From contig CM060985.1 of the NCBI GenBank assembly GCA_030765065.1, positions 2,976,001-3,040,000 of the forward strand: 64,000 bases of DNA. Direction: 5' to 3'. A program made the translations under genes and the position numbers. The stretch comes from Deroplatys truncata (lineage: Eukaryota > Arthropoda > Insecta > Mantodea > Mantidae). Each line of letters starts with the position of its first letter. Within the stretch, counting starts at the first letter, position 1. The notes below the pieces were generated by a model that made no database searches, was not told the origin of the DNA, and worked only from the letters and a program-made list of their open reading frames with translations. Of this stretch, positions 3,001 through 64,000 are shown one piece after another.

Positions 3001-5070
3001 CCCAGGACATCCTGGACAGAGTGCAACAATAGAGGCAGCATATGGTCAACATGTTACTTATTACATGCAGATATTGTTAAAACAACTCCCTCCGTACCAA
3101 CACATCCAGGACATCCTGAACAGAGTGCAACAATAGAGGCAGCATATGGTCTACATGTTACTTATCACATGCAGATATTGTTACAACTACTCCCTCTGTA
3201 CCTACACACCCAGGACATCCTGAACAGAGTGCAACAATAGAGGCAGCATTAGGTTAACATGTTACTTATCACATGTAGATATTGTTACAACTCCTTCTGT
3301 ACCTACACACCCAGGACATCCTGGACAGAGTCAAACAATAGGGGCAGCATATGGTCAACATGTTACTTATCACATGCAGATATTGTTACCACTCCCTCTG
3401 TACTTACACACCCAGGACATCCTGGACAGAGTGCAACAATAGAGGCAGCATATGGTCAACATGTCACTTATCACATGGAGATATTGTTACAACTCCTTCT
3501 GTACCTACACATCCAGGACATGCTGGACAGAGTGCAACAATAGAGGAAGCATATGGTCAACATGTCACTTATCACATGCAGATATTGTTACAACTCCCGC
3601 CGTACCTACACACCAAGGACATCATGAACAGAGTGCAACAATAGGGGCAGCATATGGTCAACATCTTACTTATCACATGCAGATATTGTTACAAGTCCCT
3701 CCGTACCTACACACCCAGGACATCATGAACAGAGTGCAAGAATAGGGGCAGCATATGGTCAATATCTTACCTATCACATGCAGATATTGTTACAACTCCC
3801 TCCTTACCTACACACCCAGGACATCCTGGACAGCGTGCAGCAATAGGGGCAGCATATGGTCAACATGTCACTTATCACATGCAGATATTGTTACAACTCC
3901 CTCCGTACGAACACACCCAGGACATCCTGAACAGAGTGAAACAATAGGGGCAGCATATGGTCAACCTCTTACTTATCACATGCAGATATTGTTACAACTC
4001 CCACCGTACATAGACACCCAGGACATCCTGAACAGAGTGCAACAATAGGGGCAGCATATGGTCAACATCTTATTTATCACATGCAGATATTGTTACAACT
4101 CCCTCCGTACCTACACACCCAGGACATCCTGAACAGAGTGCAACAATAGAGGTAGAATATGGTCAACATGTTACTTATCACATGCGGATATTGTTACAAC
4201 TCCCTCCGTACCTACACACCCAGGACATATTGAACAGAGTGCAACAATAGGGGCAGCATATGGTCAACATCTTACTTATCACATGCAGATATTGTTACAA
4301 CTCCCTCCGTAACTACACACCCAGGACATCCTGAACAGAGTACAGCAATAGAGGGAGCATATGCTGAACATGTTACTTATCACATGCAGATATTGTTACA
4401 ACAACTCCCTCCGTACCTACACACACAGGACATCCTGATCAGAGTGCAACAATAGAGGCAGCATATGGTCAACATGTCACTTATCACATGCAAATATTGT
4501 TACAACTCCCTCCGTACGAACACACCCAGGACATCCTGAACAGAGTGCTACAATAGGGGCAGCATATGGTCAACATGTCACTTATCACATGCAGATATTG
4601 TTACAACTCCCTCCGTACGAACACACCCAGGACATCCTGAACGGAGTGCTACAAAGGGGGATGCATATGGTCAACATGTCACTTATCACATGCAAATATT
4701 GTTACAACTCCCTCCGTACGAACACACCCAGGACATCCTGAACAGAGTGCTACAATAGAGGCAGCATATGGTCAACATGTCACTTATCACATGCAGATAT
4801 TGTTACAACTCCCTCCGTACGAACACACCCAGGACATCCTGAACGGAGTGCTACAAAGGGGGATGCATATGGTCAACATCTTACTTATCACATGCAGATA
4901 TTGTTAAAACTCCCACCGTACCTAGACACCCAGGACATCCTGAACAGAATGCAACAATAGGGGCAGCATATGGTCAACATCTTATTTATCACATGCAGAT
5001 ATTGTTACAACTCCTTCCCTACCTACACACCCAGGACATCCTGAACAGAGTGCAACAATAGAGGCTGCAT
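1..5070 (+). repeat. Unit 0 (partial): module A, partial A, C, approach to B
   Basis: The left end is cut by the window. Bases 1-1340 match 10298-11637 (offset 10297), and 1-2245 match 36756-39000 (offset 36755, with one monomer gained and one lost near 1340 and 1600). About 2300-2830 repeats an earlier part of module A: GATATAGTTACAACTCC at 2352 corresponds to the copy near 9793. About 2840-3640 matches 18310-19110 of module C (offset 15470). The rest (3640-5070) is monomers of the D and E type leading into the approach to B. Several monomers near 4486-4870 alternate GCTACAATAGG with GCTACAAAGGGGGATGC. No gene is present. Confidence 0.85.
4488..4495 (+). other. Octamer-like ATGCAAAT variant
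   Basis: The common word ATGCAGAT is changed to ATGCAAAT in a subset of monomers, for example here, at 5815-5822 and in the approach to each B unit. ATGCAAAT is the textbook octamer bound by POU-domain factors in animals. The match is exact, but eight bases in a huge array prove nothing about binding; it is mainly useful as a monomer-subtype marker. Confidence 0.4.
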
Positions 5071-5170
5071 ATGGCCAACATGTCACTTATCACATGCAGA
5101 TATTGTTACAACTCCCTCCGTTCCTACACACCCAGGACATCCTGACACAGTGCAACAATAGAGGCAGCAT
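5071..5170 (+). repeat. Leader monomer, 100 bp, first of 16 copies
   Basis: This monomer has CCGTTCCTACAC in place of CCGTACCTACAC, and GACACAGTG in place of GAACAGAGTG. The second change removes one base, giving 100 bp. The preceding monomer ends in GGCTGCAT rather than GGCAGCAT. The other copies start at 8840, 14233, 16068, 22459, 24294, 26226, 30298, 35298, 39586, 43759, 48849, 50684, 56977, 58812 and 60743. It stands at the head of both A-type and B-type modules, so the two share a common beginning. Confidence 0.92.
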
Positions 5171-6804
5171 ATGGTCAACATGTCACTTATCACATGCAGA
5201 TATTGTTACAACGACTCCCTCCGTACCTACACACCCAAGACATCCTGGAGAGAGTGCAACAATAGAGGCAGTTTATGGTCAACATGTTACTTATCACATG
5301 CAGATATTGTTACAACTCCCTCCGTACCTACACACCCAGGACATCCTGGAGAGAGTGCAACAATAGAGGCAGTTTATGGTCAACATGTTACTTATCACAT
5401 GCAGATATTGTTACAACAACTCCCTCCGTACCTACACACCCAGGACATCCTGAACAGAGTGCAACAATAGAGGCAGCATATGGTCAACATGTTACTTATT
5501 ACATGCAGATATTGTTAAAACAACTCCCTCCGTACCAACACATCCAGGACAACCTGAACAGAGTGCAACAATAGAGGCAGCATATGGTCAACATGTTACT
5601 TATCACATGCAGATATTGTTAAAACAACTCCCACCGTAGCTACACACCCAGGACATCCTGAACAGAGTGCAACAATAGAGGCAGCATATGGTCAACATGT
5701 TACTTATAACATGCAGATATTGTTACAACAACTCCCTCCATACCTACACACCCAGGACATCCTTAACAGAGTGCCATAATAGAGGCAGCGTATGGTCTAC
5801 ATGTTACTTATCACATGCAAATATTGTTACAACTCCCTCTGTACCTACACACCCAGGACATCATGGACAGAGTGCAACAATAGAGGCAGCATATGGTCTA
5901 CATGTTACTTATCACATGCAGATATTGTTAAGACAACTCCCTCTGTACCTACACACCCAGGACATCCTGGACAGAGTGCAACAATAGAGGCAGCATATGG
6001 TCAACATCTTACTTATCACATGCAGATATTGTTACAACTCCCTCCTTACCTACACTTCCAGGACATCCTGAACAGAGTGCAACAATAGGGGCAGAATATG
6101 TCCACATCTTACTTATCATATGCAGATATTGTTACAACTCCCTCCGTACCTACACACCCAGGACATCATGAACAGAGTGCAACAATAGGGGCAGCATATG
6201 GTCAACATCTTACTTATCACATGCAGATATTGTTACAACTCCCTCCTTACCTACACACCCAGGACATCCTGGACAGCGTGCAGCAATAGGGGCAGCATAT
6301 GGTCAACATGTCACTTATCACATGCAGATATTGTTACAACTCCCTCCGTACCTACACGCCCAGGACATCCTGGACCGAGTGCAATAATAGAGGCAGCATA
6401 TGGTCAACATCTCACTTATCACATGCAGATATTGTTACAACTCCCTTTGTACCTACACGCCCAGGACATCCTGGACAGAGTGCAACAATAGAGGCAGCAT
6501 ATGGTCAGCATGTTACTTATCACATTCAGATTTTTGTTACAACAACTCCCTCTGTACCTACACACCCAGGACCTCCTGGACAGAGTGCAACAATAGAGGC
6601 AGCATATGGTTAACATGTTACTTATCACATGCAGATATTGTTACAACTCCCTGTGTACCTACACACCCAGGACATCCTGAACAGAGTGCAACAATATAGG
6701 TAGCATATGGTCAACATGTTACTTAGCACATGCAGATATTGTTACAACAACTCCCTCTGTACCTACACGCCCAGGACATCCTGAACAGAGTACAGCAATA
6801 GAGG

Positions 6805-6816
6805 CAGCATATGCTG
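6805..6816. other. 12-bp perfect palindrome CAGCATATGCTG
   Basis: In monomers that follow a GTACAGCAATAG ending, CATATGGTC is replaced by CATATGCTG. With the preceding CAG this makes a perfect 12-bp palindrome. The same form recurs ahead of many B units (for example near 13821, 22047 and 28162). The copy near 4356 lacks it because it reads GGGAGCATATGC. Confidence 0.75.
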
Positions 6817-8839
6817 AACATGTTACTTATCACATGCAGATATTGTTACAACAACTCCCTCCGTACCTACACACACAGGACATCCTGATCAGAGTGCAAT
6901 AATAGAGGCAGCATATGGTCAACATGTCACTTATCACATGCAGATATTGTTACAACTCCCTCCGTACGAACACACCCAGGACATCCTGAACAGAGTGCTA
7001 CAATGGGGGCAGCATATGGTCAACATCTTACTTATCACATGCAGATATTGTTAAAACTCCTTCCCTACCTACACACCCAGGACATCCTGAACAGAGTGCA
7101 ACAATAGAGGAAGCATATGGTCAACATGTTACTTATCACATGCAGATATTGTTACAACTCCCGCCGTACCTACACACCCAGGACATCCTGGACAGAGTGC
7201 AACAATAGGGGCAGCATACGGTCATTATCTTACTTATCACATGCAGATATTGTTACAACAACTCCCTCTGTACCTACACACCCAGGACATCCTGAACAGA
7301 GTGCAACAATAGGGGCAGAATATGGTCAACATCTTACTTATCACATGCAGATATTGTTACAAGTCCCTCCGTACCTACACACCCAGGACATCATGAACAG
7401 AGTGCAACAATAGGGGCAGCATATGGTCAACATCTTACTTATCACATGCAGATATTGTTACAACTCCCTCCTTACCTACACACCCAGGACATCCTGGACA
7501 GCGTGCAGCAATAGGGGCAGCATATGGTCAACATGTCACTTATCACATGCAGATATTGTTACAACTCCCTCCGTACGAACACACCCAGGACATCCTGAAC
7601 AGAGTGCAACAATAGAGGCAGCATATGGTCAACATGTTACTTATCACATGCAGATATTGTTACAACTCCCTCCGTACGAACACACCCAGGACATCCTGAA
7701 CAGAGTGCAACAATAGGGGCAGCATATGGTCAACATCTTACTTATCACATGCAGATATTGTTACAACTCCCTCCTTACCTACACACCCAGGACATCCTGG
7801 ACAGCGTGCAGCAATAGGGGCAGCATATGGTCAACATGTCACTTATCACATGCAGATATTGTTACAACTCCCTCCGTACGAACACACCCAGGACATCCTG
7901 AACAGAGTGCAACAATAGGGGCAGCATATGGTCAACATCTTATTTATCACATGCAGATATTGTTACAACTCCCTCCGTACCTACACACACAGAACATCCT
8001 GAACAGAGTGCAACAATAGAGAAGGCATATGGTCAACATGTTACTTATCACATGCAGATATTGTTACAACTCCCTCCGTACCTACACACCCAGGACATCA
8101 TGAACAGAGTGCAACAATAGGGGCAGCATATGGTCAACATCTTACTTATCACATGCAGATATTGTTACAACTCCCTCCGTACCTACACACCCAGTACATC
8201 CTGAACAGAGTGCAGCAATAGGGGCAGCATATGGTCAACATGTCACTTATCACATGCAGATATTGTTACAACTCCCTCCGTACCTACACACCCAGGACAT
8301 CATGAACAGAGTGCAACAATAGGGGCAGCATATGGTCAACATCTTACTTATCACATGCAGATATTGTTACAACTCCCTCCGTACCTAGACACCCAGGACA
8401 TCCTGAACAGAGTGCAACAATAGGGGCAGCATATGGTCATCATGTCACTTATCACATGCAGATATTATTACAACAACTCCCTCCGTAACTACACACCCAG
8501 GACATCCTGAACAGAGTACAGCAATAGAGGCAGCATATGGTCATCATGTCACTTATCACATGCAGATATTGTTACAACTCCCTCCGTACGAACACACCCA
8601 GGACATCCTGAACAGAGTGCTACAATGGGGGATGCATATGGTCAACATCTTACTTATCACATGCAGATATTGTTAAAACTCCCACCGTACCTAGACACCC
8701 AGGACATCCTGAACAGAATGCAACAATAGGGGCAGCATATGGTCAACATCTTATTTATCACATGCAGATATTGTTACAACTCCTTCCCTACCTACACACC
8801 CAGGACATCCTGAAATGAGTGCAAGAATAGAGGCTGCAT

Positions 8840-11800
8840 ATGGTCAACATGTCACTTATCACATGCAGATATTGTTACAACTCCCTCCGTTCCTACACAC
8901 CCAGGACATCCTGACACAGTGCAACAATAGAGGCAGCATATGGTCAACATGTCACTTATCACATGCAGAGATTGTTACAACAACTCCCTCCGTACCTACA
9001 CACCCAGGACATCCTGGAGAGAGTGCAACAATAGAGGCAGTTTATGGTCAACATGTTACTTATCACATGCAGATATTGTTACAACTCCCTCCGTACCTAC
9101 ACACCCAGGACATCCTGAACAGAGTGCAACAATAGAGGCAGCAAAATGACATCATCTTACTTATCACATGCAGATATTGTTAAAACAACTCCCTCAGTAC
9201 CTACACACGCAGGACATCCTGAACAGAGTGCAACAATAGAGGCAGCATATGGTCAACATGTTACTTATCACATGCAGATACTGTTAAAACACCTCCCTCC
9301 GTACCTACACACTCAGGAAATCCTGAACAGAGTGCAACAATAGAGGCAGCATATGGTCAACATGTTACTTATCACATGCAGATATTGTTACAACAACTCC
9401 CTCCGTAACTACACACCCATGACATCCTGAACGGAGAGTAACAATAGAGGCAGCATATGGTATACATGTTAATTATCACATGCAGATATTGGTACAACTC
9501 CCTCTGTACCTACACACCCAGGACATCCTGGACAGAGTGCAACAATAGAGGCAGCATATGGTCTACATGTTACTTATCACATGCAGATACTGTTAAAACA
9601 ACTCCCTCCGTATCTACACACCCAGGAAATCCTGAACAGAGTGCAACAATAGAGGCAGCATATGGTCAACATGTTACTTATCACATGCAGATATTGTTAC
9701 AACAACTCCCTCCGTACCTACACACCCAGGACTCCTGAACAGAGTGCAACAATAGAGGCAGCATATGGTCAACATGTTACTTATCACATGGAGATATAGT
9801 TACAACTCCTTCCTAACCTACACACCCAGGACATCCTGAACAGAGTGCAGCAATAGGGCCAGCATATGGTCAACATGTCACTTATCACATGCAGATATTG
9901 TTAGAACAACTCCCTCCGTACCTACACACGCAGGACATCCTGATCAGAGTGCAACAATAGAGGCAGCATATGGTCAACATGTCACTTATCACATGCAGAT
10001 ATTGTTACAACAACTCCCTCCGTACCTACACACCCAGGACTTCCTGATCAGAGTGCAGCAATAGAGGCAGCATACGGTCTACATGTTACTTATCACATGC
10101 AGATATTGTTACAACTCCCTCTGTACCTACACGCCCAGGACATCCTGGACACAGTGCAAGAATAGAGGCAGCATATGGTCTAAATGTTACTTATCACATG
10201 CAGATATTGTTACAACTCCCTCTGTACCTACACACCCAGGACATCCTGAACAGAGTGCACAATAGAGGCAGCATATGGTCAAAATGTCACTTATCACATG
10301 GAGATATTGTTACAACTCCCTCTGTACCTAAACACCCAGGACATCCTGGGCAGAGTGCAACAATAGGGGCAGCATATGGTCATCATGTCACTTATCACAT
10401 GCAGATATTGTTACAACTCCCTCCGTACCTACACACCCAGGACATCCTGGACATAGTGCAACAATAGAGGCAGCATATGGTCAACATGTTACTTATCACA
10501 TGCAGATATTGTTACAACAACTCCCTCCGTACCTACACACCCAGGACATCCTGAACAGAGTGCAACAATAGCTGCAGCATATGGTCAACATGTTACTTAT
10601 CACACGCAGATATTGTTACAACTCCCTCCGTACCTACACACCCAGGACATCCTGAACAGAGTGCAACAATAGAGGCAGCAAAATGACATCATCTTACTTA
10701 TCACATGCAGATATTGTTAAAACAACTCCCTCCGTACCTACACACGCAGGACATCCTGAACAGAGTGCAACAATAGAGGCAGCATATGGTCAACATGTTA
10801 CTTATCACATGCAGATACTGTTAAAACAACTCCCTCCGTACCTACACACCCAGGAAATCCTGAACAGAGTGCAACAATAGAGGCAGCATATGGTCAACAT
10901 GTTACTTATCACATGCAGATATTGATACAACAACTCCCTCCGTAACTACACACCCAGGACACCCAGAACGGAGTATAACAATAGAGGCAGCATATGGTAT
11001 ACATGTTAATTATCATATGCAGATATTGGTACAACTCCCTCCGTACGTACACACCCAGGACATCCTGAACAGAGTGCAACAATAGAGGCAGCATATGGTC
11101 AACATGTTACTTATCACATGCAGATATTGTTACAACTCCCTCCGTACGTACACACCCAGGACATCCTGAACAGAGTGTAACAATAGAGGCAGCATATGGT
11201 CTACATGTTACTTATCACATGCAGATATTGCTACAACTTCTTCTGTACCTACACACCCAGGACATCCTGGACAGAGTGCAACAATAGAGGCAGCATATGG
11301 TCTACATGTTACTTATCACATGCAGATATTGTTACAACAACTCCCTCTGTACCTACACACCCAGGACATCCTGGACACAGTGCAACAATAGAAGCACCAT
11401 ATGGTCAACATATTACTTATCACATGCAGAATTGTTACAAAAACTCCCTCTGTACCTACACACCCAGGACTCCTGAACAGAGTGCAACAATAGAAGCAGC
11501 ATATGGTCAACATGTCACTTATCACATGCAGATATTGTTACAACTCCCGCTGTACCTAAACACCCAGGACATCATGAACAGAGTGCAACAATAGGGGCAG
11601 CATACGGTCACCATCTTACTTATCACATGCAGATATTGTTACAACTCCCACCGTACCTACACTTCCAGGACATCCTGAACAGAGTGCAACAATAGGGGCA
11701 GAATATGGTCAACATCTTACTTATCACATGCAGATATTGTTACAAGTCCCTCCGTACCTACACACCCAGGACATCCTGAACAGAGTGCAACAATAGGGGC

Positions 11801-14232
11801 AGCATATGGTCAACCTCTTACTTATCACATGCAGATATTGTTACAACTCCCTCCGTACCTACACACCCAGGACATATTGAACAGAGTGCAACAATAGGGG
11901 CAGCATATGGTCAACATCTTACTTATCACATGCAGATATTGTTACAACTCCCTCCGTACCTAGACACCCAGGACATCCTGAACAGAGTGCAACAATAGGG
12001 GCAGCATATGGTCAACCTCTTACTTATCAAATGCAGATATTGTTACAACTCCCACCGTACATAGACACCCAGGACATCCTGAACAGAGTGCAACAATAGG
12101 GGCAGCATATGGTCAACATCTTACTTATCACATGCAGATATTGTTACAACTCCCTCCGTACCTAGACACCCAGGACATCCTGAACAGAGTGCAACAATAG
12201 GGGCAGCATATGGTCAACATGTCACTTATCACATGCAGATATTGTTACAACTCCCACCGTACCTAGACACCCAGGACATCCTGAACAGAGTGCAACAATA
12301 GGGGCAGCATATGGTCAACCTCTTACTTATCAAATGCAGATATTGTTACAACTCCCACCGTACATAGACACCCAGGACATCCTGAACAGAGTGCAACAAT
12401 AGGGGCAGCATATGGTCAACATGTCACTTATCACATGCAGATATTGTTACAACTCCCACCGTACCTAAACACCCAGTACATCCTGAACAGAGTGCAACAA
12501 TAGGGGCAGCATATGGTCAACCTCTTACTTATCAAATGCAGATATTGTTACAACTCCCACCGTACATAGACACCCAGGACATCCTGAACAGAGTGCAACA
12601 ATAGGGGCAGCATATGGTCAACCTCTTACTTATCAAATGCAGATATTGTTACAACTCCCACCGTACATAGACACCCAGGACATCCTGAACAGAGTGCAAC
12701 AATAGGGGCAGCATATGGTCAACCTCTTACTTATCAAATGCAGATATTGTTACAACTCCCACCGTACATAGACACCCAGGACATCCTGAACAGAGTGCAA
12801 CAATAGGGGCAGCATATGGTCAACATCTTATTTATCACATGCAGATATTGTTACAACTCCCTCCGTACCTACACACCCAGGACATCATGAACAGAGTGCA
12901 ACAATAGAGGTAGAATATGGTCAACATGTTACTTATCAAATGCAGATATTGTTACAACTCCCTCCGTACATAGACACCCAGGACATCATGAACAGAGTGC
13001 AACAATAGGGGCAGCATATGGTCAACATCTTATTTATCACATGCAGATATTGTTACAACTCCCTCCGTACCTACACACCCAGGACATCATGAACAGAGTG
13101 CAACAATAGAGGTAGAATATGGTCAACATGTTACTTATCAAATGCAGATATTGTTACAACTCCCTCCGTACCTACACACCCAGGACATCATGAACAGAGT
13201 GCAACAATAGAGGTAGAATATGGTCAACATGTTACTTATCAAATGCAGATATTGTTACAACTCCCACCGTACATAGACACCCAGGACATCCTGAACAGAG
13301 TGCAACAATAGGGGCAGCATATGGTCAACATCTTATTTATCACATGCAGATATTGTTACAACTCCCTCCGTACCTACACACCCAGGACATCATGAACAGA
13401 GTGCAACAATAGGGGCAGCATATGGTCAACCTCTTACTTATCAAATGCAGATATTGTTACAACTCCCACCGTACATAGACACCCAGGACATCCTGAACAG
13501 AGTGCAACAATAGGGGCAGCATATGGTCAACATCTTATTTATCACATGCAGATATTGTTACAACTCCCTCCGTACCTACACACCCAGGACATCATGAACA
13601 GAGTGCAACAATAGAGGTAGAATATGGTCAAAATGTTACTTCTCACATGCGGATATTGTTACAACTCCCTCCGTACCTACACACCCAGGACATATTGAAC
13701 AGAGTGCAACAATAGGGGCAGCATATGGCCAACATCTTACTTATCACATGCAGATATTGTTACAACTCCCTCCGTAACTACACACCCAGGACATCCTGAA
13801 CAGAGTACAGCAATAGAGGCAGCATATGCTGAACATGTTACTTATCACATGCAGATATTGTTACAACAACTCCCTCCGTACCTACACACACAGGACATCC
13901 TGATCAGAGTGCAACAATAGAGGCAGCATATGGTCAACATGTCACTTATCACATGCAAATATTGTTACAACTCCCTCCGTACGAACACACCCAGGACATC
14001 CTGAACAGAGTGCTACAATAGGGGCAGCATATAGTCAACATCTTACTTATCACATGCAGATATTGTTAAAACTCCCACCGTACCTAGACACCCAGGACAT
14101 CCTGAACAGAATGCAACAATAGGGGCAGCATATGGTCAACATCTTATTTATCACATGCAGATATTGTTACAACTCCTTCCCTACCTACACACCCAGGACA
14201 TCCTGAACAGAGTGCAACAATAGAGGCTGCAT
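8840..14232 (+). repeat. Unit 2 (5393 bp): complete A module, E array, approach to B
   Basis: The leader is at 8840-8939. Module A runs to about 11640 and carries GCAAAATGACATC at 9140 and again near 10678, the GCTGCAGC word near 10571, and monomers with single-base losses (AGAATTGTTAC, GGACTCCTG) near 11430-11475. From 11640 to about 13640 it becomes an E array. It closes with the approach to B (CATATGCTGAAC near 13821, then ATGCAAATATTG near 13956). The equivalent unit 11 is 303 bp shorter, within the E array. Confidence 0.88.
12513..12815 (+). repeat. E array 1: three identical 101-bp monomers
   Basis: Three successive monomers read the same, each with CCTCTTACTTATCAAATG, CTCCCACCGTAC and CATAGACACC. 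Related copies at 12008, 12311 and 13422 are interspersed with CATCTTATTTATC monomers. The surrounding block (about 11640-13640) is made almost only of 101-bp monomers, with no CAA insertion seen. Confidence 0.85.
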
Positions 14233-16067
14233 ATGGCCAACATGTCACTTATCACATGCAGATATTGTTACAACTCCCTCCGTTCCTACACACCCAGGAC
14301 ATCCTGACACAGTGCAACAATAGAGGCAGCATATGGTCAACATGTCACTTATCACATGCAGATATTGTTACAACGACTCCCTCCGTACCTACACACCCAA
14401 GACATCCTGGAGAGAGTGCAACAATAGAGGCAGTTTATGGTCAACATGTTACTTATCACATGCAGATATTGTTACAACTCCCTCCGTACCTACACACCCA
14501 GGACATCCTGAACAGAGGGCAACAATAGAGGAAGCATATGGTCAACATGTTACTTATCACATGCAGATATTGTTACAACTCCCTCCGTACCTACACACCC
14601 AGGACATCCTGAACAGAGTGCAACAATAGAGGAAGCATATGGTCAACATGTTACTTATCACATGCAGATATTGTTACAACTCCCTCCGTACGAACACACC
14701 CAGGACATCCTGGACAGAGTGCAGCAATAGGGGCACCATATGGTCAACATGTCACTTATCACATGCAGATATTGTTACAACTCCCTCCGTACGAACACAC
14801 CCAGGACATCCTGGACAGAGTGCAGCAATAGGGGCAGCATATGGTCAACATGTCACTTATCACATGCAGATATTGTTACAACTCCCTCCGTACGAACACA
14901 CCCAGGACATCCTGAACAGAGTGCAACAATAGAGGCAGCATATGGTCAACATGTTACTTATTACATGCAGATATTGTTAAAACAACTCCCTCCGTACCAA
15001 CACATCCAGGACAACCTGAACAGAGTGCAACAATAGAGGCAGCATATGGTCAACATGTTACTTATCACATGCAGATATTGTTAAAACAACTCCCACCGTA
15101 GCTACACACCCAGGACATCCTGAACAGAGTGCAACAATAGAGGCAGCATATGGTCAACATGTTACTTATAACATGCAGATATTGTTACAACAACTCCCTC
15201 CATACCTACACACCCAGGACATCCTTAACAGAGTGCCATAATAGAGGCAGCGTATGGTCTACATGTTACTTATCACATGCAAATATTGTTACAACTCCCT
15301 CTGTACCTACACACCCAGGACATCATGGACAGAGTGCAACAATAGAGGCAGCATATGGTCTACATGTTACTTATCACATGCAGATATTGTTAAGACAACT
15401 CCCTCTGTACCTACACACCCAGGACATCCTGGACAGAGTCAAACAATAGGGGCAGCATATGGTCTACATGTTACTTATCACATGCAGATATTGTTACAAC
15501 TCCCTCCGTACGAACACACCCAGGACATCCTGGACAGAGTGCAACATTAGGGGCAGCATATGGTCAACATCTTACTTATCACATGCAGATATTGTTACAA
15601 CTCCCTCCGTAACTACACACCCAGGACATCCTGAACAGAGTAGAGCAATAGAGGCAGCATATGCTGAACATGTTACTTATCACATGCAGATATTGTTACA
15701 ACAACTCCCTCCGTACCTACACACACAGGACATCCTGATCAGAGTGCAACAATAGAGGCAGCATATGGTCAACATGTCACTTATCACATGCAAATATTGT
15801 TACAACTCCCTCCGTACGAACACACCCAGGACATCCTGAACAGAGTGCTACAATAGGGGCAGCATATAGTCAACATCTTACTTATCACATGCAGATATTG
15901 TTAAAACTCCCACCGTACCTAGACACCCAGGACATCCTGAACAGAATGCAACAATAGGGGCAGCATATGGTCAACATCTTATTTATCACATGCAGATATT
16001 GTTACAACTCCTTCCCTACCTACACACCCAGGACATCCTGAACAGAGTGCAACAATAGAGGCTGCAT
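14233..16067 (+). repeat. Unit 3: 1835-bp 18-monomer B unit
   Basis: The length resolves exactly as eleven 101-bp monomers, six 104-bp monomers and the 100-bp leader (1111 + 624 + 100 = 1835). The six long monomers are marked by CAACGACTCC, AAAACAACTCCCTCC, AAAACAACTCCCACC, ACAACAACTCCCTCCATAC, AAGACAACTCC and the one ending CTACACACACAGG. The same 1835-bp spacing occurs at units 5, 12 and 14. Unit 4 begins with a further copy of the first monomers and then diverges. Confidence 0.92.
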
Positions 16068-50683: not shown

Positions 50684-51906
50684 ATGGCCAACATGTCACT
50701 TATCACATGCAGATATTGTTACAACTCCCTCCGTTCCTACACACCCAGGACATCCTGACACAGTGCAACAATAGAGGCAGCATATGGTCAACATGTCACT
50801 TATCACATGCAGATATTGTTACAACGACTCCCTCCGTACCTACACACCCAAGACATCCTGGAGAGAGTGCAACAATAGAGGCAGTTTATGGTCAACATGT
50901 TACTTATCACATGCAGATATTGTTACAACTCCCTCCGTACCTACACACCCAGGACATCCTGAACAGAGTGCAACAATAGAGGCAGCATATGGTCAACATG
51001 TTACTTATCACATGCAGATATTGTTACAACTCCCTCCGTACCTACACACCCAGGACATCCTGAACAGAGTGCAACAATAGAGGCAGCATATGGTCAACAT
51101 GTTACTTATTACATGCAGATATTGTTAAAAAAACTCCCTCCGTACCAACACATCCAGGACAACCTGAACAGATTGCAACAATAGAGGAAGCATATGGTCA
51201 ACATGTTACTTATCACATGCAGATATTGTTAAAACAACTCCCACCGTAGCTACACACCCAGGACATCCTGAACAGAGTGCAACAATAGAGGCAGCATATG
51301 GTCAACATGTTACTTATAACATGCAGATATTGTTACAACAACTCCCTCCATATCTACACACCCAGGACATCGTGAACAGAGTGCCACAATAGAGGCAGCA
51401 TATGGTCTACATGTTACTTATCACATGCAGATATTGTTACAACTCCCTCCGTACGAACACACCCAGGACATCCTGAACAGAGTGCAACAATAGGGGCAGC
51501 ATATGGTCAACATGTCACTTATCACATGGAGATATTGTTACAACTCCTTCTGTACCTACACACCCAGGACATCCTGAACAGAGTGCAACAATAGAGGCAG
51601 CATATGGTCAAAATGTCACTTATCACATGGAGATATTGTTACAACTCCTTCTGTACCTACACACCCAGGACATCCTGAACAGTGTGCAACAATAGAGGCA
51701 GCATATGGTCAACATCTCACTTATCACATGGAGATATTGTTACAACTCCCTCTGTACCTACACACCCAGGACATCCTGAACAGAGTGCAACAATAGGGGC
51801 AGCATATGGTCTACATGTTACTTATCACATGCAGATATTGTTACAACTCCCTCTGTACCTACACACCCAGGACATCCTGAACAGAGTGCAACAATAGGGG
51901 CAGCAT

Positions 51907-52512
51907 ATGGTCTCATGTTACTTATCACATGCAGATATTGTTACAACTCCTTCTGTACCTAGACACCCAGGACATCCTGAACAGAGTGCAACAATAGGGG
52001 CAGCATATGGTCTCATGTTACTTATCACATGCAGATATTGTTACAACAACTCCCTCTGTACCTAGACACCCAGGACATCCTGAACAGAGTGCAACAATAG
52101 GGGCAGCATATGGTCTCATGTTACTTATCACATGCAGATATTGTTACAACAACTCCCTCTGTACCTAGACACCCAGGACATCATGAACAGAGTGCAACAA
52201 TAGAGGCAGCATATGGTCTCATGTTACTTATCACATGCAGATATTGTTACAACTTCCTCTGTACCTACACACCCAGGACATCATGAACAGAGTGCAACAA
52301 TAGAGGCAGCATATGGTCTCATGTTACTTATCACATGCAGATATTGTTACAACTTCCTCTGTACCTACACACCCAGGACATCATGAACAGAGTGCAACAA
52401 TAGAGGCAGCATATGGTCTCATGTTACTTATCACATGCAGATATTGTTACAACTTCCTCTGTACCTACACACCCAGGACATCCTGGACAGAGTGCAACAA
52501 TAGAGGCAGCAT
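51907..52512 (+). repeat. Second run of six TCTCATG monomers
   Basis: This matches the run at 17291-17896 at offset 34616, with the same six monomers in the same order and the same 100/103-bp lengths. Confidence 0.9.
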
Positions 52513-55500
52513 ATGGTCTACATGTTACTTATCAAATGCAGATATTGTTACAACAACTCCCTCCATACCTACACACCCAGGACATCCTGAACAGAGTGCC
52601 ACAATAGAGGCAGCATATGGTCTACATGTTACTTATCACATGCAGATATTGTTACAACAACTCCCTCTGTACCTACACACCCAGGGCATCCTGAACAGAG
52701 TGCAACAATAGAGGCAGCATTAGGTCAACATGTCACTTATCACATGTAGATATTGTTACAACTCCTTCTGTACCTACACACCCAGGACATCCTGGACAGA
52801 GTCAAACAATAGGGGCAGCATATGGTCAACATGTTACTTATTACATGCAGATATTGTTACCACTCCCTCTGTACTTACACACCCAGGACATCCTGGACAG
52901 AGTGCAACAATAGAGGCAGCATATGGTCAACATGTTACTTATTACATGCAGATATTGTTAAAACAACTCCCTCCGTACCAACACATCCAGGACATCCTGA
53001 ACAGAGTCAAACAATAGGGGCAGCATATGGTCAACATGTTACTTATCGCATGCAGATATTGTTACCACTCCCTCTGTACTTACACACCCAGGACATACTG
53101 GACAGAGTGCAACAATAGAGGCAGCATATGGTCAACATGTTACTTATTACATGCAGATATTGTTAAAACAACTCCCTCCGTACCAACACATCCAGGACAT
53201 CCTGAACAGAGTGCAACAATAGAGGCAGCATATGGTCTACATGTTACTTATCACATGCAGATATTGTTACAACAACTCCCTCTGTACCTACACACCCAGG
53301 ACATCCTGAACAGAGTGCAACAATAGAGGCAGCATTAGGTTAACATGTTACTTATCACATGTAGATATTGTTACAACTCCTTCTGTACCTACACACCCAG
53401 GACATCCTGGACAGAGTCAAACAATAGGGGCAGCATATGGTCAACATGTTACTTATCACATGCAGATATTGTTACCACTCCCTCTGTACTTACACACCCA
53501 GGACATCCTGGACAGAGTGCAACAATAGAGGCAGCATATGGTCAACATGTCACTTATCACATGGAGATATTGTTACAACTCCTTCTGTACCTACACATCC
53601 AGGACATGCTGGACAGAGTGCAACAATAGAGGAAGCATATGGTCAACATGTCACTTATCACATGCAGATATTGTTACAACTCCCGCGTACCTACACACCA
53701 AGGACATCATGAACAGAGTGCAACAATAGGGGCAGCATATGGTCAACATCTTACTTATCACATGCAGATATTGTTACAAATCCCTCCTTAGCTACACTTC
53801 CAGGACATCCTGAACAGAGTGCAACAATAGGGGCAGAATATGGTCAACATCTTACTTATCACATGCAGATATTGTTACAAGTCCCTCCGTACCTACACAC
53901 CCAGGACATCATGAACAGAGTGCAAGAATAGGGGCAGCATATGGTCAATATCTTACTTATCACATGCAGATATTGTTAGAACTCCCTCCTTACCTACACA
54001 CCCAGTACATCCTGAACAGAGTGCAGCAATAGGGGCAGCATATGGTCAACATCTTACTTATCACATGCAGATATTGTTACAACTCCCTCCTTACCTACAC
54101 ACCCAGTACATCCTGAACAGAGTGCAACAATAGGGGCAGCATATGGTCAATATCTTACTTATCACATGCAGATATTGTTACAACTCCCTCCTTACCTACA
54201 CACCCAGGACATCCTTGACAGCGTGCAGCAATAGGGGCAGCATATGGTCAACATGTCACTTATCACATGCAGATATTGTTACAACAACTCCCTCCGTACG
54301 AACACACCCAGGACATCATGAACAGAGTGCAACAATAGGGGCAGCATATGGTCAACATCTTACTTATCACATGCAGATATTGTTACAACTCCCACCGTAC
54401 ATAGACACCCAGGACATCCTGAACAGAGTGCAACAATAGGGGCAGCATATGGTCAACATGTTACTTATCAAATGCAGATATTGTTACAACTCCCTCTGTA
54501 CCTACACACCCAGGACATCCTGAACAGAGTGCAACAATAGGGGCAGCATATGGTCAACCTCTTACTTATCACATGCAGATATTGTTACAACTCCCACCGT
54601 ACCTAGACACCCAGGACATCCTGAACAGAGTGCAACAATAGGGGCAGCACATGGTCAACCTCTTACTTATCACATGCAGATATTGTTACAACTCCCTCCT
54701 TACCTACACACCCAGTACATCCTGAACAGAGTGCAACAATAGGGGCAGCACATGGTCAACCTCTTACTTATCACATGCAGATATTGTTACAACTCCCTCC
54801 TTACCTACACACCCAGTACATCCTGAACAGAGTGCAACAATAGGGGCAGCATATGGTCAACCTCTTACTTATCAAATGCAGATATTGTTACAACTCCCAC
54901 CGTACATAGACACCCAGGACATCCTGAACAGAGCGCAACAATAGGGGCAGCATATGGTCAACATCTTACTTATCACATGCAGATATTGTTACAACTTCCT
55001 CCGTACCTAGACACCCAGGACATCCTGAACAGAGTGCAACAATAGAGGCAGCATATGGTCAACCTCTTACTTATCAAATGCAGATATTGTTACAACTTCC
55101 TCCGTACCTACACACCCAGTACATCCTGAACAGAGTGCAACAATAGCGGCAGCATATGGTCAACCTCTTACTTATCACATGCAGATATTGTTACAACTTC
55201 CTCCGTACCTACACACCCAGTACATCCTGAACAGAGTGCAACAATAGAGGCAGCATATGGTCAACCTCTTACTTATCACATGCAGATATTGTTACAACTT
55301 CCTCCGTACCTACACACCCAGTACATCCTGAACAGAGTGCAACAATAGGGGCAGCATATGGTCAACCTCTTACTTATCAAATGCAGATATTGTTACAACT
55401 CCCACCGTACATAGACACCCAGGACATCCTGAACAGAGTGCAACAATAGGGGCAGCATATGGTCAACATCTTACTTATCACATGCAGATATTGTTACAAC

Positions 55501-55660
55501 TTCCTCCGTACCTAGACACCCAGGACATCCTGAACAGAGTGCAACAATAGGGGCAGCATATGGTCAACATGTCACTTATCACATGCAGATATTGTTACAA
55601 CTCCCACCGTACCTACACACCCAGGACATCCTGAACAGAGTGCAACAATAGGGGCAGCAT

Positions 55661-56266
55661 ATGGTCAACCTCTTACTTATCAAATGCAGATATTGTTACA
55701 ACTCCCACCGTACATAGACACCCAGGACATCCTGAACAGAGTGCAACAATAGGGGCAGCATATGGTCAACCTCTTACTTATCAAATGCAGATATTGTTAC
55801 AACTCCCACCGTACATAGACACCCAGGACATCCTGAACAGAGTGCAACAATAGGGGCAGCATATGGTCAACCTCTTACTTATCAAATGCAGATATTGTTA
55901 CAACTCCCACCGTACATAGACACCCAGGACATCCTGAACAGAGTGCAACAATAGGGGCAGCATATGGTCAACCTCTTACTTATCAAATGCAGATATTGTT
56001 ACAACTCCCACCGTACATAGACACCCAGGACATCCTGAACAGAGTGCAACAATAGGGGCAGCATATGGTCAACCTCTTACTTATCAAATGCAGATATTGT
56101 TACAACTCCCACCGTACATAGACACCCAGGACATCCTGAACAGAGTGCAACAATAGGGGCAGCATATGGTCAACCTCTTACTTATCAAATGCAGATATTG
56201 TTACAACTCCCACCGTACATAGACACCCAGGACATCCTGAACAGAGTGCAACAATAGGGGCAGCAT
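55661..56266 (+). repeat. E array 4: six identical 101-bp monomers
   Basis: This is the counterpart of the run at 21244, with six copies instead of five. The interrupting CGAACACACC monomer seen on the left of the earlier run is absent here. Confidence 0.85.
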
Positions 56267-56976
56267 ATGGTCAACATCTTATTTATCACATGCAGATATT
56301 GTTACAACTCCCTCCGTACCTACACACCCAGGACATCATGAACAGAGTGCAACAATAGAGGTAGAATATGGTCAACATGTTACTTATCACATGCGGATAT
56401 TGTTACAACTCCCTCCGTACCTACACACCCAGGACATATTGAACAGAGTGCAACAATAGGGGCAGCATATGGTCAACATCTTACTTATCACATGCAGATA
56501 TTGTTACAACTCCCTCCGTAACTACACACCCAGGACATCCTGAACAGAGTACAGCAATAGAGGCAGCATATGCTGAACATGTTACTTATCACATGCAGAT
56601 ATTGTTACAACAACTCCCTCCGTACCTACACACACAGGACATCCTGATCAGAGTGCAACAATAGAGGCAGCATATGGTCAACATGTCACTTATCACATGC
56701 AAATATTGTTACAACTCCCTCCGTACGAACACACCCAGGACATCCTGAACAGAGTGCTACAATAGGGGCAGCATATAGTCAACATCTTACTTATCACATG
56801 CAGATATTGTTAAAACTCCCACCGTACCTAGACACCCAGGACATCCTGAACAGAATGCAACAATAGGGGCAGCATATGGTCAACATCTTATTTATCACAT
56901 GCAGATATTGTTACAACTCCTTCCCTACCTACACACCCAGGACATCCTGAACAGAGTGCAACAATAGAGGCTGCAT

Positions 56977-58811
56977 ATAGCCAACATGTCACTTATCACA
57001 TGCAGATATTGTTACAACTCCCTCCGTTCCTACACACCCAGGACATCCTGACACAGTGCAACAATAGAGGCAGCATATGGTCAACATGTCACTTATCACA
57101 TGCAGATATTGTTACAACGACTCCCTCCGTACCTACACACCCAAGACATCCTGGAGAGAGTGCAACAATAGAGGCAGTTTATGGTCAACATGTTACTTAT
57201 CACATGCAGATATTGTTACAACTCCCTCCGTACCTACACACCCAGGACATCCTGAACAGAGTGCAACAATAGAGGAAGCATATGGTCAACATGTTACTTA
57301 TCACATGCAGATATTGTTACAACTCCCTCCGTACCTACACACCCAGGACATCCTGAACAGAGTGCAACAATAGAGGAAGCATATGGTCAACATGTTACTT
57401 ATCACATGCAGATATTGTTACAACTCCCTCCGTACGAACACACCCAGGACATCCTGGACAGAGTGCAGCAATAGGGGCACCATATGGTCAACATGTCACT
57501 TATCACATGCAGATATTGTTACAACTCCCTCCGTACGAACACACCCAGGACATCCTGGACAGAGTGCAGCAATAGGGGCAGCATATGGTCAACATGTCAC
57601 TTATCACATGCAGATATTGTTACAACTCCCTCCGTACGAACACACCCAGGACATCCTGAACAGAGTGCAACAATAGAGGCAGCATATGGTCAACATGTTA
57701 CTTATTACATGCAGATATTGTTAAAACAACTCCCTCCGTACCAACACATCCAGGACAACCTGAACAGAGTGCAACAATAGAGGCAGCATATGGTCAACAT
57801 GTTACTTATCACATGCAGATATTGTTAAAACAACTCCCACCGTAGCTACACACCCAGGACATCCTGAACAGAGTGCAACAATAGAGGCAGCATATGGTCA
57901 ACATGTTACTTATAACATGCAGATATTGTTACAACAACTCCCTCCATACCTACACACCCAGGACATCCTTAACAGAGTGCCATAATAGAGGCAGCGTATG
58001 GTCTACATGTTACTTATCACATGCAAATATTGTTACAACTCCCTCTGTACCTACACACCCAGGACATCATGGACAGAGTGCAACAATAGAGGCAGCATAT
58101 GGTCTACATGTTACTTATCACATGCAGATATTGTTAAGACAACTCCCTCTGTACCTACACACCCAGGACATCCTGGACAGAGTCAAACAATAGGGGCAGC
58201 ATATGGTCTACATGTTACTTATCACATGCAGATATTGTTACAACTCCCTCCGTACGAACACACCCAGGACATCCTGGACAGAGTGCAACATTAGGGGCAG
58301 CATATGGTCAACATCTTACTTATCACATGCAGATATTGTTACAACTCCCTCCGTAACTACACACCCAGGACATCCTGAACAGAGTACAGCAATAGAGGCA
58401 GCATATGCTGAACATGTTACTTATCACATGCAGATATTGTTACAACAACTCCCTCCGTACCTACACACACAGGACATCCTGATCAGAGTGCAACAATAGA
58501 GGCAGCATATGGTCAACATGTCACTTATCACATGCAAATATTGTTACAACTCCCTCCGTACGAACACACCCAGGACATCCTGAACAGAGTGCTACAATAG
58601 GGGCAGCATATAGTCAACATCTTACTTATCACATGCAGATATTGTTAAAACTCCCACCGTACCTAGACACCCAGGACATCCTGAACAGAATGCAACAATA
58701 GGGGCAGCATATGGTCAACATCTTATTTATCACATGCAGATATTGTTACAACTCCTTCCCTACCTACACACCCAGGACATCCTGAACAGAGTGCAACAAT
58801 AGAGGCTGCAT
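56977..58811 (+). repeat. Unit 14: 1835-bp 18-monomer B unit
   Basis: Partner of unit 5 at offset 34518. Its leader has a private change, ATAGCCAAC in place of ATGGCCAAC at 56977. Length and monomer order are those of the other B units. Confidence 0.92.
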
Positions 58812-60742
58812 ATGGCCAACATGTCACTTATCACATGCAGATATTGTTACAACTCCCTCCGTTCCTACACACCCAGGACATCCTGACACAGTGCAACAAT
58901 AGAGGCAGCATATGGTCAACATGTCACTTATCACATGCAGATATTGTTACAACGACTCCCTCCGTACCTACACACCCAAGACATCCTGGAGAGAGTGCAA
59001 CAATAGAGGCAGTTTATGGTCAACATGTTACTTATCACATGCAGATATTGTTACAACTCCCTCCGTACCTACACACCCAGGACATCCTGAACAGAGTGCA
59101 ACAATAGAGGCAGCATATGGTCAACATGTTACTTATCACATGCAGATATTGTTACAACTCCCTCCGTACCTACACACCCAGGAATTCCTGAACAGAGTGC
59201 AACAATAGAGGCAGCATATGGTCAACATGTTACTTATTACATGCAGATATTGTTAAAAAACTCCCTCCGTACCAACACATCCAGGACAACCTGAACAGAT
59301 TGCAACAATAGAGGAAGCATATGGTCAACATGTTACTTATCACATGCAGATATTGTTAAAACAACTCCCACCGTAGCTACACACCCAGGACATCCTGAAC
59401 AGAGTGCAACAATAGAGGCAGCATATGGTCAACATGTTACTTATAACATGCAGATATTGTTACAACAACTCCCTCCATATCTACACACCCAGGACATCGT
59501 GAACAGAGTGCCACAATAGAGGCAGCATATGGTCTACATGTTACTTATCACATGCAGATATTGTTACAACTCCCTCCGTACGAACACACCCAGGACATCC
59601 TGAACAGAGTGCAACAATAGGGGCAGCATATGGTCAACATGTCACTTATCACATGCAGATATTGTTACAACTCCCTCCGTACGAACACACCCAGGACATC
59701 CTGGACAGAGTGCAGCAATAGGGGCAGCATATGGTCAACATGTCACTTATCACATGCAGATATTGTTACAACTCCCTCCGTACGAACACACCCAGGACAT
59801 CCTGAACAGAGTGCAACAATAGGGGCAGCATATGGTCAACCTCTTACTTATCACATGCAGATATTGTTACAACTCCCACCGTACATAGACACCCAGGACA
59901 TCCTGAACAGAGTGCAACAATAGGAGCAGCATATGGTCAACATCTTATTTATCACATGCAGATATTGTTACAACTCCCTCCGTACCTACACACCCAGGAC
60001 ATCCTGAACAGAGTGCAACAATAGAGATAGCATATGGTCAACATGTTACTTATCACATGCAGATATTGTTACAACTCCCTCCGTACCTACACACCCAGGA
60101 CATCATGAACAGAGTGCAACAATAGGGGCAGCACATGGTCAACATCTTACTTATCACATGCAGATATTGTTAAAACTCCCTCCGTACCTACACACCCAGT
60201 ACATCCTGAACAGAGTGCAGCAATAGGGGCAGCATATGGTCAACATCTTACTTATCACATGCAGATATTGTTACAATTCCCTCCGTACCTAGACACCCAG
60301 GACATCCTGAACAGAGTGCAACAATAGGGGCAGCATATGGTCATCATGTCACTTATCACATGCAGATATTGTTACAACAACTCCCTCCGTAACTACACAC
60401 CCAGGACATCCTGAACAGAGTACAGCAATAGAGGCAGCATATGCTGAACATGTTACTTATCACATGCAGATATTGTTAAACTCCCTCCGTACGAACACAC
60501 CCTTGACATCCTGAACAGAGTGCTACAATGGGGGATGCATATGGTCAACATCTTACTTATCACATGCAGATATTGTTAAAACTCCCACCGTACCTAGACA
60601 CCCAGGACATCCTGAACGGAATGCAACAATAGGGGCAGCATATGGTCAACATCTTATTTATCACATGCAGATATTGTTACAACTCCTTCCGTACCTACAC
60701 ACCCAGGACATCCTGAAATGAGTGCAACAATAGAGGCTGCAT
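58812..60742 (+). repeat. Unit 15 (1931 bp): truncated B, then mixed monomers
   Basis: Partner of unit 6, sharing its CAGGAATTCCTG (59179-59190). It is one base shorter because the A-run in TTAAAAAAACTCC has six A here against seven in units 4, 6 and 13. Confidence 0.9.
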
Positions 60743-63700
60743 ATGGTCAACATGTCACTTATCACATGCAGATATTGTTACAACTCCCTCCGTTCCTACA
60801 CACCTAGGACATCCTGACACAGTGCAACAATAGAGGCAGCATATGGTCAACATGTCACTTATCACATGCAGATATTGTTACAACAACTCCCTCCGTACCT
60901 ACACACCCAGGACATCCTGGAGAGAGTGCAACAATAGAGGCAGTTTATGGTCAACATGTTACTTATCACATGCAGATATTGTTACAACAACTCCCTCCGT
61001 ACCTACACACCCAGGACATCCTGAACAGAGTGCAACAATAGAGGCAGCATATGGTCAACATGTTACTTATTACATGCAGATATTGTTAAAACAACTCCCT
61101 CCGTACCAACACATCCAGGACAACCTGAACAGAGTGCAACAATAGAGGCAGCATATGGTCAACATGTTACTTATCACATGCAGATATTGTTAAAACAACT
61201 CCCACCTTAGCTACACACCCAGGACATCCTGAACAGAGTGCAACAATAGAGGCAGCATATGGTCAACATGTTACTTATAACATGCAGATATTGTTACAAC
61301 AACTCCCTCCATACCTACACACCCAGGACATCCTTAACAGAGTGCCATAATAGAGGCAGCGTATGGTCTACATGTTACTTATCACATGCAAATATTGTTA
61401 CAACTCCCTCTGTACCTACACACCCAGGACATCATGGACAGAGTGCAACAATAGAGGCAGCATATGGTCTACATGTTACTTATCACATGCAGATATTGTT
61501 AAGACAACTCCCTCTGTACCTACACACCCAGGACATCCTGGACAGAGTGCAACAATAGAGGCAGCATATGGTCAACATCTTACTTATCACATGCAGATAT
61601 TGTTACAACTCCCTCCTTACCTACACTTCCAGGACATCCTGAACAGAGTGCAACAATAGGGGCAGAATATGTCCACATCTTACTTATCATATGCAGATAT
61701 TGTTACAACTCCCTCCTTACCTACACACCCAGGACATCATGAACAGAGTGCAACAATAGGGGCAGCATATGGTCAACATCTTACTTATCACATGCAGATA
61801 TTGTTACAACTCCCTCCTTACCTACACACCCAGGACATCCTGGACAGCGTGCAGCAATAGGGGCAGCATATGGTCAACATGTCACTTATCACATGCAGAT
61901 ATTGTTACAACTCCCTCCGTACGAACACACCCAGGACATCCTGAACAGAGTGCAACAATAGGGGCAGCATATGGTCAACCTCTTACTTATCACATGCAGA
62001 TATTGTTACAACTCCCACCGTACCTAGACACCCAGGACATCATGAACAGAGTGCAACAATAGGGGCAGCATATGGTCAACATCTTATTTATCACATGCAG
62101 ATATTGTTACAACTCCTTCCGTACCTACACACCCAGGACATCCTGAACACAGTGCAACAATAGAGGTAGCATATGGTCAACATGTCACTTATCACATGCA
62201 GATATTGTTACAACTCCCTCCGTACCTACACGCCCAGGACATCCTGGACCGAGTGCAATAATAGAGGCAGCATATGGTCAACATCTCACTTATCACATGC
62301 AGATATTGTTACAACTCCCTTTGTACCTACACGCCCAGGACATCCTGGACAGAGTGCAACAATAGAGGCAGCATATGGTCAGCATGTTACTTATCACATT
62401 CAGATTTTTGTTACAACAACTCCCTCTGTACCTACACACCCAGGACCTCCTGGACAGAGTGCAACAATAGAGGCAGCATATGGTTAACATGTTACTTATC
62501 ACATGCAGATATTGTTACAACTCCCTGTGTACCTACACACCCAGGACATCCTGAACAGAGTGCAACAATATAGGTAGCATATGGTCAACATGTTACTTAG
62601 CACATGCAGATATTGTTACAACAACTCCCTCTGTACCTACACGCCCAGGACATCCTGAACAGAGTACAGCAATAGAGGCAGCATATGCTGAACATGTTAC
62701 TTATCACATGCAGATATTGTTACAACAACTCCCTCCGTACCTACACACACAGGACATCCTGATCAGAGTGCAATAATAGAGGCAGCATATGGTCAACATG
62801 TCACTTATCACATGCAGATATTGTTACAACTCCCTCCGTACGAACACACCCAGGACATCCTGAACAGAGTGCTACAATGGGGGCAGCATATGGTCAACAT
62901 CTTACTTATCACATGCAGATATTGTTAAAACTCCTTCCCTACCTACACACCCAGGACATCCTGAACAGAGTGCAACAATAGAGGAAGCATATGGTCAACA
63001 TGTTACTTATCACATGCAGATATTGTTACAACTCCCGCCGTACCTACACACCCAGGACATCCTGGACAGAGTGCAACAATAGGGGCAGCATACGGTCATT
63101 ATCTTACTTATCACATGCAGATATTGTTACAACAACTCCCTCTGTACCTACACACCCAGGACATCCTGAACAGAGTGCAACAATAGGGGCAGAATATGGT
63201 CAACATCTTACTTATCACATGCAGATATTGTTACAAGTCCCTCCGTACCTACACACCCAGGACATCATGAACAGAGTGCAACAATAGGGGCAGCATATGG
63301 TCAACATCTTACTTATCACATGCAGATATTGTTACAACTCCCTCCTTACCTACACACCCAGGACATCCTGGACAGCGTGCAGCAATAGGGGCAGCATATG
63401 GTCAACATGTCACTTATCACATGCAGATATTGTTACAACTCCCTCCGTACGAACACACCCAGGACATCCTGAACAGAGTGCAGCAATAGGGGCAGCATAT
63501 GGTCAACATGTCACTTATCACATGCAGATATTGTTACAACTCCCTCCGTACGAACACACCCAGGACATCCTGAACAGAGTGCAACAATAGGGGCAGCATA
63601 TGGTCAACCTCTTACTTATCACATGCAGATATTGTTACAACTCCCTCCGTACGAACACACCCAGGACATCCTGAACAGAGTGCAACAATAGGGGCAGCAT

Positions 63701-64000
63701 ATGGTCAACATCTTATTTATCACATGCAGATATTGTTACAACTCCCTCCGTACCTACACACACAGAACATCCTGAACAGAGTGCAACAATAGAGAAGGCA
63801 TATGGTCAACATGTTACTTATCACATGCAGATATTGTTACAACTCCCTCCGTACCTACACACCCAGGACATCATGAACAGAGTGCAACAATAGGGGCAGC
63901 ATATGGTCAACATCTTACTTATCACATGCAGATATTGTTACAACTCCCTCCGTACCTACACACCCAGTACATCCTGAACAGAGTGCAGCAATAGGGGCAG
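60743..64000 (+). repeat. Unit 16 (partial): B head plus D module
   Basis: Partner of unit 7, sharing the CCTAGG leader change (60803-60808). The CCCGCCGTACC monomer is single (from 62991), not triple. One private change gives CCACCTTAGC near 61203 in place of CCACCGTAGC. The unit is cut by the window end inside the D module. Confidence 0.88.

What the first reader, a model, noticed from the sequence alone, without database searches (positions are those of the whole stretch)
4479..64000. Very large nested superrepeat with a period near 34.5 kb
Seen: 4479-29685 recurs as 38994-64000, collinear apart from steps that are nearly all whole monomers, and including private variants. Known: satellites often form higher-order repeats, but usually of a few to some tens of monomers. 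Here the repeating unit is about 340 monomers and is itself a mosaic of smaller repeats. Inference: a large recent duplication or unequal sister-chromatid exchange copied a block that was already complex.
Basis: partly seen in the sequence, partly recalled or inferred. Interest (0 to 1): 0.72.

Follow-up and report, generated by a model that had tools for sequence, protein, structure and literature searches.

The report
Large tandem duplication inside satellite DNA
A 34.5-thousand-letter block of a chromosome's repetitive "satellite" DNA appears to have been copied next to itself almost unchanged, which suggests that satellite arrays can grow in big in-place steps and not only one repeat at a time.

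Summary
The window lies inside one 101-bp satellite array (C11:2,889,291 to between 3,262,689 and 3,300,000) of a 4.29-Gb genome, probably an arthropod. Unit A (window 4384-38898, 339 monomers) is followed directly by unit B (window 38899 onward, 341 monomers, ending about 9.6 kb beyond the window). Of 327 paired monomers 309 are identical (37 edits, 0.11%, 8 of them in the junction monomer); the alignment has ten gaps, each of 1-6 whole monomers. The window's end cut the match short: it is a complete head-to-tail duplication, and 29685-38993 is the rest of unit A, not a spacer. An older partial copy Z lies upstream; over 175 shared monomers the distances are Z-A 41, Z-B 42, A-B 9. The A|B junction keeps monomer register, switches within a 14-bp shared tract, and is unique in the genome. 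Best explanation: successive in-register unequal exchanges between sister chromatids. Assembly duplication is less likely but not excluded, since no reads were available. Upstream parts of the array and the neighbouring 88-bp satellite show similar nested kilobase-scale duplications. Kind and mechanism are known; unit size (about 340 monomers, against 59 for the largest primate unit in one paper) and nesting are unusual.

The parts
1..64000 (+). part of a 101-bp head-to-tail satellite array (C11:2,889,291 to between 3.263 and 3.300 Mb)
   Evidence: TRF 628.7 copies, 91% matches; array start; extent; 3,148 forward and 0 reverse matches genome-wide at up to 3 mismatches in 40
1..4383 (+). tail of the older, partial copy Z (Z as aligned = C11:2,956,982-2,980,383, 230 monomers)
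   Evidence: monomer alignments Z-A and Z-B; C11:2977626-2980654 matches 3049000-3052028, beyond unit B, at 99.87%
4384..38898 (+). superrepeat unit A, 339 monomers
38899..64000 (+). superrepeat unit B, 341 monomers; continues past the window to C11:3,049,621 (monomer boundary; base-level match to 3,049,626)
38994..39007 (+). 14-bp tract within which the A|B junction switches from unit end to unit start, in monomer register
   Evidence: comparison of left boundary, junction and right boundary; a 54-mer over it occurs once in the genome at up to 1 mismatch
13232..16931 (+). internal duplicate inside unit A, partner 21458-25157 (99.57%)
21458..25157 (+). internal duplicate inside unit A, partner 13232-16931
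29299..32300 (+). internal duplicate inside unit A; partner 7841-10842 (99.8%), and 29685-32300 also matches 34685-37300 at an offset of exactly 5,000 bp (99.69%)
34685..37300 (+). second member of the 5,000-bp-offset internal duplication; copy Z has a 49-monomer, 5,000-bp gap relative to A here

Best explanation
The feature is a true tandem segmental duplication of about 34.5 kb inside a 101-bp satellite array that seems to be confined to one locus. Shown: two complete adjacent units (A, B) at 0.11% divergence, an older partial relative (Z), an in-register junction, and whole-monomer differences between copies. Inferred: a chromatid mispaired with its sister about 34.5 kb out of phase, and homologous exchange (or a break-repair event with the same outcome) joined the end of one unit to the start of the other. 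An earlier event of similar size made Z and the ancestor of A/B. Small slippages or conversions of 1-6 monomers, and kilobase-scale duplications inside the unit, happen alongside. Repetition of this makes the array a nested mosaic. No function beyond array growth is indicated.
For: A and B abut: the chain 2980368-3015007 pairs with 3014883-3049626. 309 of 327 paired monomers identical; gaps are whole monomers. Three-way distances over the 175 monomers (17,810 bp) aligned consistently in all three: Z-A 41, Z-B 42, A-B 9, so Z split first and both branches are equally long. The junction switches in register within 14 bp and is unique in the genome. A second tandem duplication upstream (2900903-2911866/2911776-2922739, 10,964 bp, 99.95%) also has an in-register chimeric junction. 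In the 176.7 kb held, no block of at least 1 kb and 99% links 2892-2940 kb to 2957-3053 kb, and the largest offset is 77.6 kb (I drew these domain limits after seeing the blocks), so recent exchange is local. Human pedigrees show de novo changes of whole alpha-satellite repeat units from 680 to 12,228 bp in one transmission (PMC12240836, passages seen).
Against: No reads, second assembly or second individual was available, so copy number is that of one assembly. Only two junctions were examined at base level, and the 10.9-kb one has a substitution beside the switch point. Fourteen bp of shared sequence does not by itself tell crossover from break-induced replication or circle reintegration. 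A facing 6-monomer/6-monomer difference between A and B looks more like conversion or replacement than slippage. The unit is larger than the one-generation events cited.
Confidence: 0.8

Rival explanations
1. Assembly duplicate: two haplotypes, or overlapping contig ends, laid in tandem, so that only one unit exists per chromosome.
For: 0.11% divergence with small structural steps is also what two alleles could show. No read evidence was available.
Against: No N in the 176.7 kb of array held or in the 264 kb up to the window's end. A third copy at clearly greater distance lies in line. In the stretch held the longest exact match found between A and B is 4,377 bp, and 6,644 bp anywhere, short against long accurate reads. 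Nested duplications recur elsewhere in the array and in a different satellite, which one false join would not give.
Confidence: 0.12
2. Circular DNA excised from the array and reinserted by homologous recombination.
For: Reinsertion at the homologous place gives the same tandem product and the same kind of junction (reasoning, not a test).
Against: Needs an extra intermediate; the two private 40-mers tested occur only in this array, at the expected copies, and no copy elsewhere was seen.
Confidence: 0.06
3. A long regular higher-order repeat array, with many more copies of the 34.5-kb unit downstream.
For: Three copies in line, one of them partial.
Against: Private 40-mers occur 3 and 2 times in the genome and not downstream of unit B. 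The match fades at about C11:3,052,690. Probes at 3.100, 3.200 and 3.250 Mb match the held array in blocks of at most 532, 288 and 247 bp at 99% or more (longest at lower identity 811, 735 and 262 bp).
Confidence: 0.02

Closest known systems
Higher-order repeats of primate alpha satellite, including cascading HORs and the 59mer of orangutan chromosome 13 (PMC11276891, passages seen)
   Same: Unit of many diverged monomers copied in tandem with very small divergence between copies (0.1% given for the 59mer; 0.11% here); variant copies differ by whole monomers
   Different: About 340 monomers (34.5 kb) instead of 59; two complete copies and one partial instead of the eight of the 59mer; monomers about 10% apart instead of 22.4%; the unit contains near-identical internal duplicates; centromere role unknown
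De novo structural changes in human centromeric arrays (PMC12240836, passages seen)
   Same: Gains and losses in whole repeat units inside satellite arrays
   Different: Reported sizes 680-12,228 bp in alpha-satellite HOR arrays; here 34.5 kb, inferred from one assembly
Evolutionary layers of alpha-satellite arrays (PMC11062924, passages seen)
   Same: Locally confined blocks with their own history inside an array
   Different: The human examples seen are 870 kb and 1.2 Mb and are attributed to saltatory amplification; here few copies of a large block
Large tandem repeats in the mouse genome, where the text uses 'single locus' (PMC3218096, search listing and start of abstract only)
   Same: May be a precedent for tandem repeat families tied to one place
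   Different: Not read and not compared in sequence or structure

Membership tests
Satellite higher-order repeat (HOR) | unit made of several diverged monomers | tested here: met
   mean edit distance of random monomer pairs 10.7
Satellite higher-order repeat (HOR) | copies of the unit far more alike than monomers within it | tested here: met
   0.11% between A and B
Satellite higher-order repeat (HOR) | copies head to tail in register | tested here: met
Satellite higher-order repeat (HOR) | a run of many regular copies | tested here: not met
   two complete copies and one partial; 40-mers found 3 and 2 times genome-wide
Segmental tandem duplication | at least 1 kb at 90% identity or more, adjacent, unique junction | tested here: met
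   the usual definition (recalled) leaves out satellite sequence
Assembly (false) duplication | gap at or near the join | tested here: not met
   0 N in 176.7 kb of array
Assembly (false) duplication | half the normal read depth on each copy | not testable with these tools
   no reads held
Centromeric satellite | CENP-A or kinetochore occupancy | not testable with these tools
   no chromatin data; the array lies 2.9-3.3 Mb from the start of a 200-Mb contig

The most novel reading that the evidence does not exclude
This chromosome end is a patchwork of satellites, each private to a single array, that arise and grow only in place: by nested in-register duplications of kilobases to tens of kilobases, confined to tens of kilobases, with no spread to other chromosomes and no inversion. 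That would separate local growth from between-chromosome homogenisation, which satellite models usually combine.
Probability: 0.35. Interest if true: 0.5.

Novelty: new member of a known kind. Interest (0 to 1): 0.36.

Why it matters
The locus records single growth steps of a satellite array: an order of events (Z before A/B), a unique junction, and whole-monomer gaps in numbers comparable with point changes. It suggests that large block duplications, and not only exchange of one or a few monomers, build such arrays. The junction can be tested in other individuals.

Tried and rejected
Coding tandem repeat: no ORF of 250 aa or more in the window. Continuation of the unit downstream: the BLAST step failed and only word counts came out (2,646 of 2,960 and 2,165 of 2,960 41-mers of the two probes are shared with the array); rerun, which shows short blocks only. 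Common origin of the satellites here: 13 consensus units compared in 156 pair-orientations, 60 shuffles each; the best are 60-bp versus 106-bp (score 22, best shuffle 18, z 4.9) and 88-bp versus 98-bp (21, best shuffle 18, z 3.9); 101-bp versus 88-bp gives z 1.7. With that many tests I take these as weak and unproven, not as shown absent. Mollusc haemocyanin domain PF14830: no match, but it rang in no control either, so this says nothing. A search of the genome with 2 kb of the window gave no scored result, because there were too many candidates. Paper PMC9233505 is not held and was not read. Literature searches (listings seen, capped at 10-15 rows) showed nothing that describes this locus or a satellite unit of this size; passages of four papers were seen, and (maize) added nothing used here.

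Full report
WHERE IT IS. The window is C11:2,976,001-3,040,000 of a 4.29-Gb genome in 818 contigs; C11 is 200.3 Mb long. The genome has 27 matches to the haemocyanin domain PF00372, best E 7.7e-43; it rang in none of 14 control genomes. The family is typical of arthropods (recalled), so the organism is probably an arthropod; its name is not given. Window coordinate equals C11 coordinate minus 2,976,000.

THE ARRAY. All 64 kb are one head-to-tail 101-bp satellite. It begins abruptly at C11:2,889,291, directly after an 88-bp satellite that starts at 2,831,375. It is still present at 3,250,001-3,250,600 and 3,262,689 and absent from a probe at 3,300,001. A 40-base core with up to 3 mismatches occurs 3,148 times forward and 0 times reverse in the genome. 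The 176.7 kb held contains 1,419 of them, which extrapolates to a 392-kb array, so this one array can hold all of them. The tool lists only the first places, so this is arithmetic and not a full list.

THE SUPERREPEAT. I split 176.7 kb into 1,738 monomers; the inner ones fall into 470 distinct sequences, and random pairs differ by 10.7 edits on average. In whole monomers unit A is 2,980,384-3,014,898 (339) and unit B 3,014,899-3,049,621 (341). 327 pair, 309 identically, with 37 edits (0.111%), 8 of them in the first pair, the chimeric junction monomer. The alignment has ten gaps of 1-6 whole monomers; one is at the very end of B and two of 6 monomers face each other. The longest run of identical monomers in the window is 42, against a maximum of 3 in 30 order shuffles.

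ORDER OF EVENTS. A third, partial copy Z (2,956,982-2,980,383, 230 monomers) lies directly upstream. Z-A: 190 monomers paired, 48 edits (0.25%); Z-B: 189 paired, 55 edits (0.29%); 40 and 41 of Z's 230 monomers stay unpaired, 22 and 21 of them a tail whose counterpart lies beyond unit B. On the 175 monomers aligned consistently in all three the distances are 41 (Z-A), 42 (Z-B) and 9 (A-B). A and B are therefore sisters and Z split earlier, at about 4.6 times the depth. Relative to A, Z has a 49-monomer, 5,000-bp gap that fits A's internal 5,000-bp-offset duplication: A's ancestor gained it or Z lost it. With a point mutation rate of a few 1e-9 per base per generation (recalled for insects, not measured here), the A/B event would be of the order of 1e5 generations old; a rough figure.

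JUNCTION. At the A|B join the sequence follows the right end of unit B up to C11:3,015,007 and the left start of unit A from 3,014,994, so the switch lies in a 14-bp shared tract and keeps monomer register. A 54-mer over it occurs once in the genome at up to 1 mismatch. The 10.9-kb duplication upstream has the same kind of in-register chimeric junction, with one substitution near the switch. These are two junctions; it was the only adjacent pair that an automatic filter for ungapped tandem blocks of at least 1 kb found, and other duplications were not resolved to their joins.

NESTING AND LOCALITY. 71% of unit A is covered by blocks of at least 1 kb and 99% identity with partners inside A; 82% of the 176.7 kb has such a partner somewhere in it. 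There are 89 such block pairs. None joins 2892-2940 kb to 2957-3053 kb, 4 touch the stretch between, and the largest offset is 77.6 kb (domain limits drawn after seeing the blocks). Between 3,193 and 3,227 kb, positions of one 30-mer recur at 7.7-8.9 kb, suggesting another local repeat (inference from positions). The 88-bp array shows 4.9-5.4-kb blocks at 5.9-kb offset and 3.3-3.9-kb blocks at 19-kb offset, 99.6-99.9% identical.

MECHANISM. In-register junctions, whole-monomer gaps, adjacency and local confinement point to unequal exchange between sister chromatids, or break repair with the same product. Reintegration of a circle at the homologous place would look the same and is kept as a rival. 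Assembly duplication is the main practical doubt. Against it stand the third copy at greater distance, the absence of N, the modest longest exact match (4,377 bp between A and B) and the recurrence of the pattern elsewhere; reads would settle it.

COMPARISON WITH WHAT IS KNOWN. It works like a higher-order repeat, but as a member it fails on the run of many copies. The 59mer of orangutan is called the longest primate HOR unit by its authors (PMC11276891, passages); the unit here has about 340 monomers, though as a two-copy duplication. De novo human events change whole units by 680-12,228 bp (PMC12240836, passages). I found no description of this locus in the searches made (listings). I file it as a new member of a known kind, unusual in size.

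SURROUNDINGS. Of 20 three-kb probes along C11:0-10 Mb (chosen, denser near the window, three of them in this array), 13 are tandem repeats over at least 85% of their length, two more (L006, L009) over a bit more than 40%, and 5 over little or nothing; by their consensus units the ten of the 13 outside this array are all different. Of 16 interior probes of 600 bp on C11 and other contigs, 0 show tandem repeats; of three probes at 2.0 Mb on C3, C5 and C12, one does. Four families were tested genome-wide and none gave a reverse match: 101-bp (289 exact; the listed places are all in this array), 88-bp (45 of 45 in its array), 80-bp (94 of 94 at 1.967-2.028 Mb), 85-bp (599; the listed first ones all at 2.680-2.704 Mb). 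For all but the 101-bp family the patterns were exact 26- to 29-mers, which would miss diverged relatives. This patchwork of private satellites may be more interesting than the superrepeat itself.

Noticed in passing
C11:0-10 Mb (L001-L020): The chromosome end is a patchwork of many satellites of different unit (39-164 bp); four of four families tested genome-wide show one orientation only and, as far as places are listed, a single array.
   Followed up: partly
C11:2,889,291-2,889,299 (L032): The 88-bp satellite changes into the 101-bp satellite within a short shared GCAACAA stretch, with no other sequence between them.
   Followed up: no
C11:2,776,001-2,831,374 (L021-L026): Non-satellite segments recur at about 96-98% identity (for example 2781565-2782439/2821706-2822580) beside short tandem arrays of 41-72 bp, as if a mobile element carried tandem repeats; a 6,756-bp stretch is also duplicated at 6,356-bp offset at 99.75%.
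   Followed up: no
C11:3,193,311-3,226,903: A 30-mer recurs in pairs 3.5-3.6 kb apart, the pairs spaced 7.7-8.9 kb, suggesting a further local superrepeat of four copies downstream.
   Followed up: no
C11:2,892,781-2,939,520 (L032-L037): A separate domain of the same array has its own duplications at offsets 8.4, 10.9, 25.5 and 32.1 kb, 99.9-100% identical, including a run of 6,644 identical bases.
   Followed up: partly
C16:281.8, 428.0-428.2 and 607.7-607.9 Mb; C5:10.24-10.53 Mb: Clusters of exons of the haemocyanin family; several C5 matches and one on C16 contain stops.
   Followed up: no
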